A DNA stretch of 64,000 nt from Radicibacter daui (GTDB lineage Bacteria; Pseudomonadota; Alphaproteobacteria; Radicibacterales; Radicibacteraceae): assembly GCA_030657355.1 (NCBI GenBank), contig CP131057.1:641501-705500 (forward strand), read 5' to 3'. The notes below the pieces were generated by a model that saw nothing but the letters and a program-made list of their open reading frames with translations, made no database searches and had not been told where the DNA came from. Position 1 is the stretch's first letter. Every line of letters starts with the position of its first letter. The translations under genes and the position numbers were made by a program. Below are positions 8,920 through 14,966 of the stretch, in pieces.

Positions 8920-9085
8920 ACGATGCTTGGACGCAAACGGGCTGTCAAGCCTCTGTCATCAGCCCGTCGATGCGCCGATGCCAAATTTGGGGAGCTGCGC
9001 TTCATACTGTTCCGGCGCAAATTCGGCTAGAACACGATTGCCTGCCGTAAACCGGGGGCCAGACCAACACTCCCGCGGGGTCGTC

Positions 9086-9781
9086 ATGAACAAGGACCAG
9101 TTATCCCGGCTCGACAATCCCGCCTGGTCCGCCCTGACGTCGGACCATCGGCCACTTTCCAGCGGCGGCGCCCTCGCACGACGGTATGACCCGGCGATAT
9201 CCGTCTTTGCCGGCATGGAAGCGGAAACGCCGGATGCCTATGCCGAGCTGGGCAGCCTGCTGGGGGGCGGCGGCAAGGCCGTGCTGTTTACGCCGCAACA
9301 GCTTTCGCCGCCCGGAGATTTCACCAGCACCGCACTGGGAGAAGGCTTCCAGATGGTGGCGCAGACCGTGCCCCCTCCCTCCGGCAATCCCGCTGCAGAT
9401 TTTGTCCGGCTGACCGCTGAAGACGTGCCCGAGATGCAGCAACTGGTGGAGCTGACCAAACCGGGCCCTTTCGCCCCCCGCACCATTGAACTGGGCCAGT
9501 ATCTGGGCGTACGCGAAAAGGGCGCCCTGGCGGCGATGGCCGGCGAGCGCATGCGCTTTGGCGAGTTTGTCGAGATCAGCGCCGTCTGCGTCCACCCGGA
9601 TCATCGCGGCAAGCAACTGGCACACAAGCTGATGCTTGAACTGGCAGCGCGTATCAGGGCGGAAGGCAGGACCCCTATCCTCCATGTGTTCACCAATAAT
9701 AGCCCGGCGATCGCGCTCTATGAAAAACTCGGCTTCGTCATCCGCCAGCGCTTCAAGGTCGCGCTGCTGGGGCTCGCCTGA
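9086..9781 (+). CDS. GNAT-family N-acetyltransferase
   Basis: A 231-residue protein with a C-terminal acetyltransferase fold at about residues 110-231. The acetyl-CoA site is seen as VCVHPDHRGKQLAHKLM (motif A, the Q/R-x-x-G-x-A loop), followed by HVFTNNSPAIALYEKLGFV, typical of FR47-like acetyltransferases. The N-terminal half (about 1-105) is a degenerate companion domain. The start at 9086 begins MNKDQLSRLDNP; the frame is open to 8927 but without conserved sequence. It converges on the glutaminase gene, and its last 16 codons lie inside the direct repeat that flanks the inserted cassette. Confidence 0.85.
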   Translation: MNKDQLSRLDNPAWSALTSDHRPLSSGGALARRYDPAISVFAGMEAETPDAYAELGSLLGGGGKAVLFTPQQLSPPGDFTSTALGEGFQMVAQTVPPPSGNPAADFVRLTAEDVPEMQQLVELTKPGPFAPRTIELGQYLGVREKGALAAMAGERMRFGEFVEISAVCVHPDHRGKQLAHKLMLELAARIRAEGRTPILHVFTNNSPAIALYEKLGFVIRQRFKVALLGLA

Positions 9782-9958
9782 CGGGAGCCGGAACGCGCGA
9801 TAAAAAGCTTAAGCCCTTCCGACGCCGGGCAAGCGGAAAGGCTCCGGCTCGAACAGCGACAGGCCGAGCCGTTTGGAGAGCAATTCCAGCGCCTGCGTGC
9901 CCAGCTTGGAATTGCCAAAGCTGTTGAGCCCCGGCGACCAGACGGCGATGGAGGCGGT
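9733..9958. repeat. Left copy of the GNAT/glsA junction direct repeat
   Basis: About 226 bases align without gaps to 13805-14030 (offset 4072). I count roughly 25 differences, so about nine bases in ten agree; in the glutaminase-coding part from about 9826 onward nearly all agree. The repeat spans the last codons of the GNAT gene, the short convergent intergenic gap, and the last 49 codons of glsA. The left copy has the whole GNAT gene but only the glsA end. It marks the left border of the inserted cassette. Confidence 0.9.
9809..9957 (-). pseudogene. Truncated 3' end of a glutaminase gene
   Basis: Reading leftward, this encodes a stretch starting [19 protein letters not shown], then [19 protein letters not shown] and the end RLPGVGRA, nearly identical to the C-terminus of the intact glutaminase at 13881-14825 (which ends RLPGVAAA). 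No start codon or catalytic part is present, and sequence similarity stops abruptly near 9958. It is a remnant created by duplication of the gene junction, not a functional gene. Confidence 0.88.
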
Positions 9959-10289
9959 CCCTGTAGGGAAGTCCCTGAGCCCAAGAAGTCTGGGAGGGCG
10001 CAATTTTCGGTCAAAAAGTTCGGGAGGAAAAAAATGACGAAATCCAAAAGGGCCTTCTGTTCGACCGTTTCTGCATTCAGCTCCGGCATTTCCCGTTAAC
10101 CTTGCCAACGTTCGCCAACAAGATGTTGCGAGTTCCATAGCCGAAAAAATCTTGAACCTCGACTACACCCCCAGCAGCAGACACGACACTGTTCGATCTC
10201 GATCCAAACACACAGGATGTCAAAAACACCCCCGCAGTCACCCACAACGAGCTCTGACACAATATAGAAAAACAAGCGCGTTGAGCAAA
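9959..10289. other. Left flank of the inserted cassette, no confident gene
   Basis: This 331-base stretch lies between the repeat border and the stop codon of the large coiled-coil gene. It holds the small inverted repeat TCCCTGTAGGGA at the border and one tiny frame (10034-10099, 21 codons) behind a strong GGGAGGAAAAAA ribosome site. A minus-strand open frame at 10077-10262 lacks a ribosome site. No terminator hairpin with a T run was seen after the coiled-coil gene, and no integrase or transposase remnant. Confidence 0.5.
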
Positions 10290-12233
10290 TTACATCTCCC
10301 TCCCGTGAAGTCTGATAACCAGCAAAACACGCTCTATCATTTCAGTCCGCATTCTTTGGTATGTATTGTCTAAATCAGCGGTGTCAAAGCCGTCCTGCTG
10401 TACATTAGGTGAATACAAAGCTTGCCCTCCATTATTCCAGTACCGGTGATAACTATACCCCTGGCTTACGACTGTTGCATGAATTCGGTGATACCATACG
10501 ACCGTTGTGAAAAGTTGGTTACATATAGCTATCGCCCCATTCTCTGTATCCTCGACATTATAGACACTGACTGCCGTTCCGACCGGCACAGAATTATTGA
10601 AAGTAGTGTAATGGTTATTGACCGATCCATTAATATTTTCCCCTGCTATACCCAAGCGAGTTAGCCACTTGTCCCGGCTGACAGCGCATTGCCTCTGATA
10701 TTTGTCCTCAAGCCTCTCAAGCATTACGCTCAGATCTTCGTCCTGTTCTCTTATCATATCTCCTGCCAACAAGCGGCATGTTGAAGTGCGCGACCTTTCA
10801 ACCAAAGCGTAATACGCAAGTTTCTCAATATATTCGTCATAATGATCGATGGTTAACCGGGTGCGTTTGATCTGCTCTCCAGCAATATCATATTTAAAAT
10901 CGGATATAAGGTTATTTATAATTTCAATTTGAAGATACAAATCTTCTATTTTATATTGAAACCTGGGAAATTTTACCTCAGACATTCTTAATTCTAATAG
11001 TTTTATAGAGCGAGATAATTCTTTTTTTATTTTCACCAACCTTGCAACGGCGTCTTCTTTTTGCTGTACATCGTTCTCATATTGTTTGATCAAGTCATCC
11101 AGCTGATTGATGCTTCTAAAAATAGGTTTCAATCTTTCGGTAAATTCTGCCTTTTTGATATCCTGAATGAGCTGATCCCTGTCGCCGAATTCAGTATTAT
11201 AGTATTCATTAACATTGTCGAACAAAACATTTACCCTTACGCCGCGAGCCGTCAAACTACCGCTTCTAGAATTATGGTATACAGAGGTAATATGTTCCAG
11301 TTTTATTAAAATATCCTCTTTTAATTTACCTAGTTCTTCTATCTCACGTTCTTTTTTTATTACATTAGCTTCATAGATTTTTATCATAACATTTAATTTT
11401 TTTATATTTTCCAAAATTAACTTTAACTCATCTACTGAACTTACGCCATTGATGTATTGAATAACAACTTCTTCATCGCCAAATTTACTATTATAAAATT
11501 CAACTATGTCTCCACATGTAATATCTACCTCTTCCCCGCGAATCGGCAAATCTCCACTTATGAATATTTGGTAACTTAAATTAATATCGTCAATTTTTTT
11601 CTTAATCTCTGTTATTTCTTTATAGAGTAAAAAAGACACTTCATATTTTTCATATTTTTTCATAATAAAATCAAATCTTTGCTTAATATAAGCAAATACC
11701 TCGTCTGTTTTACTAAAAAATGGCACGATAATAACATCAGTATGTTCTCTTCTTTTTTTAAAAAGAGCTTTTTTTAAATTAGTTTTTTTTGGCCCGTTTC
11801 TTAATTCATCGATACTACCTCTATAATTTTTCCATTCAATTAATAATTCTTCAAATTGAATAATTATACCAGAAAATCCAAGGTGTAATTCTGTAATTTT
11901 TGCTCCTGTTTGCTCCAAAATAACTTCTAGCAATTTAACATCATTTTCTACCGTACTTTCGTGGCGGGCTTTTACAAATGGATAATCCATCATCTCCCGA
12001 TACCTGCCACAGAGGTCGCTCATCTCCTGAAATCTAAATTCAGCTTCTTTTTGCTTACTTTCAGCTTTTGCAATTTCATCGGAAAAATCCGGCAATTGTA
12101 CCTTAAGAGCCCGACTTCGCTCATTCGGACCCGGCTCTGGCGTTGTTACGCTGGTGGACTGTGCAAAAAACACCTGGCCAAGGCTTTCGATTGCTTTTTT
12201 TTGGGATGAATTTTCGGAATCTTGCATAGACAT
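10290..12233 (-). CDS. Large coiled-coil protein with internal 98-residue repeat, function unknown
   Basis: A 647-residue soluble protein of unknown function, second gene of the inserted cassette. Residues 50-110 and 180-460 are rich in Lys/Glu with coiled-coil character. A tandem duplication is visible: SGDLPIRGEEVDI at 226 matches SGSLTARGVRVNV at 324, and YNSKFGD at 248 matches YNTEFGD at 346, a period of 98 residues. The C-terminal 120 residues (from about 525) are different: Asn-, Tyr- and Trp-rich, predicted beta (VNNHYTTFNNSVPVG, YHRYWNNGG). No Walker motif, signal peptide or membrane span. GGAGG precedes the ATG. The middle (about 10850-12000) is extremely AT-rich, unlike the gene ends and all neighbours, a sign of transfer. 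Confidence 0.75.
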   Translation of the reverse strand: MSMQDSENSSQKKAIESLGQVFFAQSTSVTTPEPGPNERSRALKVQLPDFSDEIAKAESKQKEAEFRFQEMSDLCGRYREMMDYPFVKARHESTVENDVKLLEVILEQTGAKITELHLGFSGIIIQFEELLIEWKNYRGSIDELRNGPKKTNLKKALFKKRREHTDVIIVPFFSKTDEVFAYIKQRFDFIMKKYEKYEVSFLLYKEITEIKKKIDDINLSYQIFISGDLPIRGEEVDITCGDIVEFYNSKFGDEEVVIQYINGVSSVDELKLILENIKKLNVMIKIYEANVIKKEREIEELGKLKEDILIKLEHITSVYHNSRSGSLTARGVRVNVLFDNVNEYYNTEFGDRDQLIQDIKKAEFTERLKPIFRSINQLDDLIKQYENDVQQKEDAVARLVKIKKELSRSIKLLELRMSEVKFPRFQYKIEDLYLQIEIINNLISDFKYDIAGEQIKRTRLTIDHYDEYIEKLAYYALVERSRTSTCRLLAGDMIREQDEDLSVMLERLEDKYQRQCAVSRDKWLTRLGIAGENINGSVNNHYTTFNNSVPVGTAVSVYNVEDTENGAIAICNQLFTTVVWYHRIHATVVSQGYSYHRYWNNGGQALYSPNVQQDGFDTADLDNTYQRMRTEMIERVLLVIRLHGREM

Positions 12234-12292
12234 TTGATGTCCTCCGGCCGACCGCCCGCATCCAATTTATAAACCGAAAAATATCCGCTATT

Positions 12293-13651
12293 TTAACCGC
12301 TTCCAGTCAGAAGTTCTGTCTGGAGGAAATCTACAAACAGAACTCCTGGGCTAACGATATTAAATTCTTCACCAGCTATTTTAAGACGCCGGTATTTTTC
12401 ATCAGCAAAGATCATGTCTTTCCACTCGCCAGCAAGAAAAACGGCATCAGCGCGCTGGCCGGATTCGATAGCGGCGCCTAAGCTTTCCGTCATTTTTTCA
12501 TACGTATTCCAACAATATTTCCGTATTTCCTCTATCAACTTTCCGGTATCCGGCGAAACGGCGGAAAACGCTTTTTGGAAACTCTGCAAGGATCGGTCGA
12601 CATCGGCCCTTAACCGTGAAGACCCGAGGGATATGCCATCCTCCCGTTCCTCCGGTCCGGTGGAGCCGATCATCGCTTCCACTCTTTCCAGCGCCCGGGC
12701 GGCGGCGTCGGAATTGGAGGCGGAAAGGGCGGAATCCAGCTCGCGATACAGGTCGCGTATTTCTTTTTCTGTTTCCGGTCTGGTTTTAATTATCGATTGA
12801 AGCGGCCCGATATAGTCGTCCCGCTTCCGTTTGAATTCGGCCAGCCGCTCTGAAACGGCATCCGAGCCTTCCGATTGCCGTTCTTCCAGGTCGCCGTCGG
12901 GTTCGATCACGCCGTCGGGGCCGAGAACGACAGGCCTGAAAGGCAGTTTCCAACCTTTGAACAGCTTCATCAGCCGCCTCGGAAGGCCCGCCGGGGGTCG
13001 CCTCTCGCACTGGAAGGTCGCAATCTTGCCGTCCAGCGTCACTGTCCCGAAAGCACCCTTTACCGCACCGTTATTCTGCTTGATCAGGGCTGCCAGTTTT
13101 CGGCCCGCGGCGCGTTTATGGAGCGCCAGCAGATCGTCGGCCCCATCGGCGCCGGCACCATAAGCGAAGTGAAAGGGCTCGTTCCTGGCGCGCAGGATGT
13201 TTTTTTTAATGGTTTGCGGTCGGAAGATTTTTTGACCCGGCTCTTCTTCTCCGTCGTCTTCTTCCTCTGCCTCCTCCTCACGTGCCTTTGGAAGGTCGGT
13301 TGCTGTATCCGGCTCCATATCGGCGCCGTCCCCGGCCGGGGCCACCGCCACCTTCAAAGGCAGCCCGTGCTCCCGCAACCATTCGGTCAGAAGTTTCTGC
13401 TGGCCGGTGATTTCCTTGTTCACCGTAAATTCGATGGAGGAGCCTTCAAAGGAAAGTTCGCCCCAGAATCCCTTGGTGTATTTTTTCTTTTTCAATAAAG
13501 CGAATAGCTGAGGTCCGGTTCTTATCTTGTCGGCAACCAGCGCATTCTCCAGCGGCCCGCTGAAAGCAAAGGCGAAATTCATCGGTTTTTGGCGGGACGC
13601 CTTGATCATCTTGATCGCATATTCACTCTCCAGAAGTGCGTCAGTCGACAT
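12293..13651 (-). CDS. Two-module protein with acidic linker, function unknown
   Basis: A 452-residue protein, first gene of the cassette, 59 bases before the coiled-coil gene. Residues about 23-106 and 158-247 are two copies of one module: each begins with an FAF/FHFAY strand, has LxALxK followed by a KG.(F/W)G strand pair, an extended F..(N/C) strand, and ends GLP.k..V..G. Between them lies a highly acidic linker (111-139, almost all Glu/Asp). The C-terminal third (265-452) is helical with short Leu-rich repeats. No signal peptide or catalytic motif. Start 13651 has GAGG seven bases upstream. I recall similar modules in uncharacterised large bacterial proteins but cannot assign a role. Confidence 0.72.
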   Translation of the reverse strand: MSTDALLESEYAIKMIKASRQKPMNFAFAFSGPLENALVADKIRTGPQLFALLKKKKYTKGFWGELSFEGSSIEFTVNKEITGQQKLLTEWLREHGLPLKVAVAPAGDGADMEPDTATDLPKAREEEAEEEDDGEEEPGQKIFRPQTIKKNILRARNEPFHFAYGAGADGADDLLALHKRAAGRKLAALIKQNNGAVKGAFGTVTLDGKIATFQCERRPPAGLPRRLMKLFKGWKLPFRPVVLGPDGVIEPDGDLEERQSEGSDAVSERLAEFKRKRDDYIGPLQSIIKTRPETEKEIRDLYRELDSALSASNSDAAARALERVEAMIGSTGPEEREDGISLGSSRLRADVDRSLQSFQKAFSAVSPDTGKLIEEIRKYCWNTYEKMTESLGAAIESGQRADAVFLAGEWKDMIFADEKYRRLKIAGEEFNIVSPGVLFVDFLQTELLTGSG

Positions 13652-13804: not shown

Positions 13805-14030
13805 CTTCGTGACATGCCAGCGCTTCAAGGTCGGCTTGCCGGGACCCGCCTGACGAGAGCCCGAACCGACGGTTAAAAGCTTAAGCCGCAGCGACGCCGG
13901 GCAACCGGAAAGGCTCCGGCTCGAACAGCGACAGGCCGAGCCGTTTGGAGAGCAATTCCAGCGCCTGCGTGCCCAGCTTGGAATTGCCGAAGCTGTTGAG
14001 CCCCGGCGACCAGACGGCAATGGAGGCCGC
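13805..14030. repeat. Right copy of the GNAT/glsA junction direct repeat
   Basis: Matches 9733-9958 without gaps. This copy contains only the last few codons of a GNAT gene (reading FVTCQRFKVGLPGPA and stop, against FVIRQRFKVALLGLA in the intact gene), then the intergenic gap and the intact end of glsA. The GNAT-side portion is clearly more diverged than the glsA side. It marks the right border of the cassette. Between it and the first cassette gene (13652-13804) is an AT-rich stretch that probably holds the cassette promoter, with TATAAG and TAAGAAT on the minus strand, but no pair of boxes is convincing. Confidence 0.9.
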
Positions 14031-14825
14031 CCCCGGCACGACAGCCAGAATGCCGCCGCCCACGCCGCTCTTGGCCGGGATGCCGACGCGGAAGGCAAAC
14101 TCGCCCGAGCCATCATAATGGCCGCAGGTCATCATCAGCGCGTTGATGTTGCGTACATTATCCGCCGCAATCAGCGGCGGGCCGCTCTGGATGCCGGCAA
14201 GGAAGCGCCCCGCCCGGGCCAGCTGGGCGCAGCTCAATTCAATGGCGCACTGATGGAAATAGGTGCCGAGCACCAGATCCACCGTGTTGGTCAGATTGCC
14301 GCAGGAGCGCAGGTAATGGGCAAGCGCCCAGTTGCGGTCGCCGGTCGCCTTTTCCGAAGCGGCAACCACCGGATTGATGAGGATGCTGTCATCCCCCGCC
14401 GCCGCGCGGATGAAGTGCAACAGCTCGGCCAGCGTGTGGCGCGGCACGCCTTTGGCGAGGATGGCATCGGTCACCAGAATGGCGCCGGCATTCATGAACG
14501 GGTTGCGTGGCCGCCCGGCGCTCAGCTCCACCTCGACGATGGAATTAAAGGCGGAGTTGGAAGGCTCGCGCCCCACCCGGCGCCACAGCCCCTCCCCCAG
14601 CCGGCCAAGCGCGATGGCCAGCGTGAACACCTTGGAGATGCTCTGCATGGAAAAATGCTGGTCCGCATCGCCGGTGCTGAACTGCTCCCCGCTGGCAAGG
14701 CAGACGGACAGGGCGAACTGGCGCGGATCGATGCAGGAAAGCTCGGGGATATAATCGGCGACCTTGCCGCGATCTTCTTCCCCGCGCATCTGCGCGCCGA
14801 TCTCGTCAATGATGGTCTGGAGCAT
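13881..14825 (-). CDS. glsA: Glutaminase (serine-type)
   Basis: A 314-residue glutaminase that hydrolyses L-glutamine to glutamate and ammonia in the cytoplasm; length matches the family (about 310). The serine-beta-lactamase-like fold shows the nucleophile motif [11 protein letters not shown] (the S-x-x-K), the conserved [10 protein letters not shown], the Tyr of [19 protein letters not shown], and the C-terminal block [20 protein letters not shown]. The start at 14825 ([10 protein letters not shown]) is the usual family N-terminus; the frame is open to 14957 but adds an Arg-rich head. Its last 49 codons lie in the direct repeat, and a copy of them remains at 9809-9957. It originally converged directly on the GNAT gene. 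Confidence 0.95.
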
Positions 14826-14966
14826 GTTGTGCTTCTTGTCCCGGACGGGATGACGGCGCCCCCGAACAATGCCGGAAGGCGCCGAAACCGGCTCCCGGAA
14901 TACCATCACCGCAGCCCGCACCGCCAGTACCGTGCAGGCTCCAGGGAGTTTTCGCAAATCGTCTGC

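What the first reader, a model, noticed from the sequence alone, without database searches (positions are those of the whole stretch)
10290..13651. Two-gene cassette of unknown function: candidate undescribed system
Two large unknown proteins (452 and 647 residues) are encoded in one direction 59 bases apart, both with good ribosome sites, as the only content of a recent insertion. Gene content swapped as a pair at a fixed site is typical of defence or conflict systems. Neither protein shows ATPase, nuclease, protease or membrane motifs, so any such activity would be new. This is inference from architecture only.
Basis: inference. Interest (0 to 1): 0.78.

Follow-up and report, generated by a model that had tools for sequence, protein, structure and literature searches.

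The report
Type VI secretion effector with adaptor
Two unknown genes dropped between two ordinary genes most likely encode a weapon protein and the adaptor that loads it onto the bacterium's type VI secretion harpoon; the adaptor carries a small, apparently undescribed domain that marks a whole family of such weapons in alphaproteobacteria.

Summary
Both ORFs are real: 452 aa upstream, 647 aa downstream, minus strand, 59 bp apart, the only genes between 229-bp direct repeats (89%) at the convergent GNAT/glutaminase 3' ends. The 452-aa protein carries two copies of a ~100-aa domain ("ND") absent from Pfam, NCBIfam, PHROGs and PADLOC. Three more ND loci lie in the same genome. ND occurs in 34 of 396 sampled Rhodobacteraceae genomes (87 places): stand-alone beside a large variable protein, or fused N-terminally to long helical proteins. 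Tips of these proteins include known toxin domains (CdiA_C, Endonuclea_NS_2) and a zincin, often followed by a small, immunity-like gene. The T6SS sheath gene tssC is in 33/34 ND+ but 7/45 ND- genomes (p = 3e-14); in 18 genomes an ND gene lies 2.3-3.0 kb from tssC. The eCIS marker shows no link. The host genome has a T6SS cluster. Best reading: the 452-aa protein is a T6SS adaptor with ND as loading domain, and the 647-aa helical orphan is its cargo effector, as in RIX or MIX modules. Shown: domain family, architectures, T6SS linkage. Inferred: secretion, binding, toxicity. Phage defence is unlikely. The 647-aa protein has no detectable homologue and no adjacent immunity gene.

The parts
12293..13651 (-). 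452-aa protein, proposed T6SS adaptor: two ND domains plus a helical C-terminal region
   Evidence: ORF; paralogues in own genome; ND family in Rhodobacteraceae; AlphaFold mean pLDDT 81.5
13328..13633 (-). ND copy 1 (residues about 7-108)
   Evidence: HMM match; fold order H-E-E-H-E-E-H-E
12902..13231 (-). ND copy 2 (residues about 141-250)
   Evidence: HMM match; pLDDT about 90-96
12296..12874 (-). helical C-terminal region (residues about 260-452), proposed cargo-holding platform
   Evidence: AlphaFold secondary structure; role inferred
10290..12233 (-). 647-aa orphan protein, proposed cargo effector: helical shaft and unique C-terminal tip
   Evidence: ORF; no homologue; role inferred from paralogous loci
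11310..11558 (-). internal duplication in the 647-aa protein, unit 1 (residues 226-308)
11016..11264 (-). internal duplication in the 647-aa protein, unit 2 (residues 324-406)
9733..9961 (.). left direct repeat: end of intact GNAT gene plus truncated glutaminase 3' end
13805..14033 (.). right direct repeat: truncated GNAT 3' end plus end of intact glutaminase gene
8927..9781 (+). flanking GNAT acetyltransferase gene (not part of the cassette; start codon not settled)
   Evidence: Pfam FR47 and Acetyltransf_1
13881..14957 (-). flanking glutaminase gene (not part of the cassette; start codon not settled)
   Evidence: Pfam Glutaminase

Best explanation
The cassette is an orphan (auxiliary) type VI secretion effector module. 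The 452-aa protein is an adaptor: its two ND domains dock on a part of the T6SS (which part is unknown), and its helical C-terminal region holds the downstream-encoded 647-aa protein. The 647-aa protein is the cargo effector: a helical shaft with a unique C-terminal tip that acts in the target cell. Elsewhere the same ND domain is fused directly to the effector, so the split pair is the two-gene form of a one-protein design, as with MIX or RIX. Shown by computation: the ND family, its fused and split architectures, toxin tips in relatives, and co-occurrence and physical linkage with T6SS genes. Inferred: that this pair is secreted, that the two proteins bind each other, and that the tip is toxic.
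For: tssC (PF05943) in 33/34 ND+ against 7/45 ND- Rhodobacteraceae genomes, p = 3e-14; still 15/16 when ND genes lie outside the T6SS cluster, p = 3e-8. In 18 genomes an ND gene lies 2.3-3.0 kb from tssC, beside tssA. The host has a T6SS cluster (tssA, B, C, F, G, H, K, L, M, VgrG). ND-linked proteins carry toxin domains: CdiA_C (L095), Endonuclea_NS_2 (L129), a zincin shared with the C-terminus of the own-genome 1079-aa protein. Small genes of recurrent families follow the fused forms, as immunity genes would. The same roles are fused in one chain or split in two or three genes. RIX secreted adaptors are an experimental precedent (PMC10435454).
Against: The 647-aa protein has no homologue and no recognisable toxin domain, and no immunity gene lies next to it. 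The host T6SS is diverged from the Rhodobacteraceae one, and no ND gene lies in its cluster. ND also occurs with ExbB/ExbD genes and a protein kinase, so it is not only an effector tag. Co-occurrence genomes share some ancestry. Nothing here measures secretion or binding.
Confidence: 0.62

Rival explanations
1. ND proteins are T6SS accessory or regulatory components that stay in the cell, for example docking near TssA or on an ExbB/ExbD-type energised complex. The 647-aa protein is then a scaffold or regulator and not a delivered effector.
For: ND genes beside tssA in 18 genomes; ND + ExbB + two ExbD operons in L110, L115, L138, L139; ND with a protein kinase in L066.
Against: Most ND places (62 of 87) are more than 20 kb from tssC or on other contigs, with variable partners and toxin tips, which is effector-like and not machine-like.
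Confidence: 0.15
2. An intracellular conflict system, such as abortive infection: ND senses an invader or binds a regulator, and the large partner is an effector kept silent until triggered.
For: Mobile cassette between repeats, variable partners, no signal peptide seen, effector-type domains in relatives.
Against: No PADLOC match for the pair and only one weak one among ten relatives; the near-perfect T6SS association is not expected of a defence system; no ND in phages or viral contigs with the queries used.
Confidence: 0.12
3. Delivery by another machine (extracellular contractile injection system, type I secretion).
For: The zincin tip also occurs in a Streptomyces protein whose N-terminus resembles eCIS cargo (resemblance recalled, a lead only); one ND operon lies beside type I secretion genes.
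Against: eCIS tube gene PF06841 in 4/34 ND+ and 4/45 ND- genomes, none in the host; type I genes seen at one locus only.
Confidence: 0.05
4. A decaying or non-functional insertion whose ORFs survive by chance.
For: GC mosaic and AT-rich middle of the 647-aa gene, no homologue, no immunity gene.
Against: Both frames are intact with ribosome sites and 59-bp spacing; the duplicated 83-aa unit is still recognisable at protein level; both ND copies fold with high confidence.
Confidence: 0.06

Closest known systems
RIX-domain T6SS effectors and secreted adaptors (Vibrionaceae; PMC10435454)
   Same: One N-terminal domain is either fused to varied toxins or sits in an adaptor encoded just upstream of a separate cargo effector; some members lack an immunity gene
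   Different: RIX is arginine-rich and reported from Vibrionaceae; ND is a ~100-aa alpha/beta domain, often duplicated, on very long helical proteins in Alphaproteobacteria; secretion is proven for RIX, not for ND
MIX domain and the six vgrG-locus domain families (PMC10673891)
   Same: Stand-alone or fused use of a T6SS effector-recruitment domain
   Different: Those were found beside vgrG; ND cassettes are mostly orphan loci without VgrG or PAAR genes within the stretches read
T6SS adaptors DUF4123, DUF2169, DUF1795 (EagR)
   Same: Proposed role: an adaptor gene next to its effector gene
   Different: No Pfam match of the 452-aa protein to these families
Roseobacter T6SS with long sheath protein TssCL (PMC9515649)
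   Same: ND+ Rhodobacteraceae genomes carry tssC plus a second tssC-like match in a long ORF, as described for that system
   Different: The host of the window has one tssC-like match only and a divergent T6SS cluster
CdiA and other polymorphic toxins
   Same: Variable toxin tips, small gene after the toxin, shared N-terminal part
   Different: No CdiB/FhaC-type secretion or signal peptide was seen for ND proteins; delivery is proposed to be by T6SS

Membership tests
T6SS effector/adaptor module (functional class) | T6SS present in the genome | tested here: met
   tssC at C1:1173913; tssA, B, C, F, G, H, K, L, M and VgrG
T6SS effector/adaptor module (functional class) | Family co-occurs with T6SS across genomes | tested here: met
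   33/34 against 7/45, p = 3e-14
T6SS effector/adaptor module (functional class) | Family members carry toxin domains or immunity-like neighbours | tested here: met
   CdiA_C, Endonuclea_NS_2, recurrent small downstream genes; not met for the window's own 647-aa protein
T6SS effector/adaptor module (functional class) | T6SS-dependent secretion | not testable with these tools
   Needs a secretion assay
RIX class | RIX sequence domain | not tested
   RIX sequences were not at hand; no Pfam, NCBIfam or PHROG family matched
DUF4123 / DUF2169 / DUF1795 adaptors | Pfam match to the family | tested here: not met
   No such match for the 452-aa protein
Known anti-phage defence systems (PADLOC) | Match to a PADLOC model | tested here: not met
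eCIS cargo | eCIS tube gene (PF06841) in the genome | tested here: not met
   None in G000

The most novel reading that the evidence does not exclude
[quoted passage not shown] It couples long helical effectors (up to about 1950 aa in one chain, or split over two or three genes) to T6SSs whose effectors are otherwise unknown, and the window pair is a mobile split member with a new kind of effector tip.
Probability: 0.55. Interest if true: 0.75.

Novelty: new variant of a known kind. Interest (0 to 1): 0.63.

Why it matters
A published survey states that no function had been described for roseobacter T6SSs (PMC9515649), and cargo effectors are hard to find because they lack a universal signal (PMC10435454). 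A domain whose presence tracks the T6SS almost perfectly and sits on proteins with toxin tips gives a direct handle: 87 candidate places in 34 sampled genomes, including new tips such as the 647-aa protein, and a possible docking partner near TssA.

Tried and rejected
Pfam, NCBIfam, PHROGs, PADLOC and PDB sequence searches of both proteins: nothing significant. Both genome-contig scans (647-aa protein; ND alignment A4): no relatives, the second probably because its degenerate patterns were too weak. Viral-contig scans: none. Plasmids with the 647-aa protein: none; phages searched only with the 418-aa paralogue: none. 385 Alphaproteobacteria drawn evenly by family: no ND outside the host, which misled until Rhodobacteraceae were sampled densely. 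Foldseek of the 452-aa model against PDB and BFVD: nothing at E <= 0.001; weak gelsolin/cofilin and PscP hits discarded. AlphaFold of the 647-aa protein without homologues: mean pLDDT 35, not used for any argument. eCIS delivery: tested, not supported. Type I secretion as a general partner: one locus only. Defence system: not supported. A 109-aa ORF downstream of the 647-aa gene (9809-10138, -) considered as immunity gene: its C-terminal half is the glutaminase fragment of the left repeat, so rejected.

Full report
What is there. Two minus-strand ORFs of 452 aa (12293-13651) and 647 aa (10290-12233) are separated by 59 bp; the 452-aa gene comes first in transcription. They are the only genes between two copies of a 229-bp stretch (9733-9961 and 13805-14033, 89% identical, 83-bp identical core) that contains the facing 3' ends of a GNAT acetyltransferase gene and a glutaminase gene. 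The left copy carries a truncated glutaminase end, the right copy a truncated GNAT end. This is the structure expected after single-crossover integration of a circular molecule carrying the junction, or after att-like recombination; no integrase is in the cassette, so the mechanism is inference. GC is mosaic: 55% in the 452-aa gene, 24-28% in much of the middle of the 647-aa gene, about 64% around.

The 452-aa protein. Profile libraries and PDB sequences give nothing significant. It holds two copies of a ~100-aa domain, called ND here. The same genome has three further ND loci: a 510-aa protein (two ND) followed by a 1079-aa protein with an HEVGH zincin motif and a CpXC gene; a ~419-aa protein followed by a 684-aa protein; and a 111-aa single ND. 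AlphaFold with 37 relatives gives mean pLDDT 81.5, with most ND positions around or above 90 and the order helix-strand-strand-helix-strand-strand-helix-strand, followed by helical bundles. No solved or viral structure matched at E <= 0.001.

The family. Plasmid searches found fused forms in Phaeobacter and Leisingera (about 1840-1890 aa: ND, long helical part, zincin; followed by a CpXC gene), a fused form in Qingshengfaniella (698 aa) and a split operon in the latter (429 + 939 + 1022 aa). In a sample of 396 Rhodobacteraceae genomes, 34 have ND, at 87 places. I fetched 78 stretches around these and mapped operons. The main classes are: fused zincin protein + CpXC gene; split ND + helical protein + ~1000-aa protein (13 loci); large proteins followed by a 144-152-aa gene of one family (six loci, five of them after a fused ND protein); ~470-520-aa ND proteins + 93-95-aa gene (four loci); two-gene pairs with unique partners, as in the window; and ND genes inside T6SS clusters. 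Toxin domains above curated cut-offs occur: CdiA_C in the partner of a two-ND protein (L095) and Endonuclea_NS_2 in a fused two-ND protein (L129). The best match of the 452-aa protein after its 510-aa paralogue is the fused two-ND L096; L129 and L095 follow further down.

T6SS. The sheath family PF05943 is in 33 of 34 ND+ genomes and 7 of 45 ND- genomes of the same family (Fisher p = 3e-14). The ND+ genomes come from 33 genera, which limits but does not remove shared ancestry. Restricting to ND+ genomes whose ND genes all lie more than 3.2 kb from tssC leaves 15 of 16 (p = 3e-8). In 18 genomes an ND gene lies 2.3-3.0 kb from tssC; tssA lies between the two in the loci read, and is divergent from ND in those whose strands I compared. 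These genomes also have a second tssC-like match in a long ORF, as described for the roseobacter TssCL protein (PMC9515649). The eCIS marker PF06841 is not associated (4/34 against 4/45) and is absent from the host. The host genome has tssA, B, C, F, G, H, K, L, M and VgrG at C1:1165-1183 kb; its cluster is diverged from the Rhodobacteraceae one, has one sheath-like gene and no ND gene.

The 647-aa protein. No homologue was found in GTDB genomes with the degenerate-pattern search, in plasmids, in viral contigs or in any fetched ND locus. It contains an 83-aa internal duplication (residues 226-308 and 324-406). Its AlphaFold model is too poor to use. Long helical stretches are common in partners of this family, so a shaft-plus-tip layout is likely; the tip (about the last 120 residues) is unknown. 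No immunity gene is present beside it, as for the 684-aa pair and the three-gene class; RIX-type effectors with anti-eukaryotic domains also lack one (PMC10435454).

Mechanism proposed. ND docks on the T6SS, the helical C-terminus of the 452-aa protein holds the 647-aa cargo, and firing delivers it. The RIX secreted-adaptor operons are the closest proven parallel. DUF4123, DUF2169 and DUF1795 are not matched in Pfam; RIX, MIX, FIX and WHIX were not compared by sequence. The papers searched name no ND-like domain for alphaproteobacterial T6SS, but most subscription papers and all preprints are outside that library, so the domain may have been described elsewhere.

Verdict. [quoted passage not shown]

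Noticed in passing
L110 5905-12583, L115, L138, L139 (Rhodobacteraceae T6SS clusters): An ND gene beside tssA heads an operon with ExbB/TolQ, two ExbD/TolR and a DUF4384/BON-like protein: an energised envelope complex linked to a T6SS.
   Followed up: partly
L066 537-5837: Two ND genes (141 and 552 aa) precede a 1031-aa protein with a protein kinase domain; a related ~1030-aa protein follows ND in L089.
   Followed up: no
G000:C2:479049-484600 (L009 9049-14600): Own-genome paralogous operon: two-ND protein, 1079-aa zincin protein, CpXC protein; the 1079-aa protein has an AT-rich-looking helical insert.
   Followed up: partly
window 9733-9961 and 13805-14033: Duplication of a convergent gene-end junction around a cassette without an integrase; how it integrated is unexplained.
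   Followed up: partly
L147 (NZ_CP042263 255000-295000) and many ND loci: A caspase-family protein gene lies next to tssA in Qingshengfaniella, and caspase-like matches recur near T6SS-cluster ND loci.
   Followed up: no
window 10290-12233: Sharp GC mosaic within one gene: about 45-49% at both ends, 24-28% in much of the middle.
   Followed up: partly
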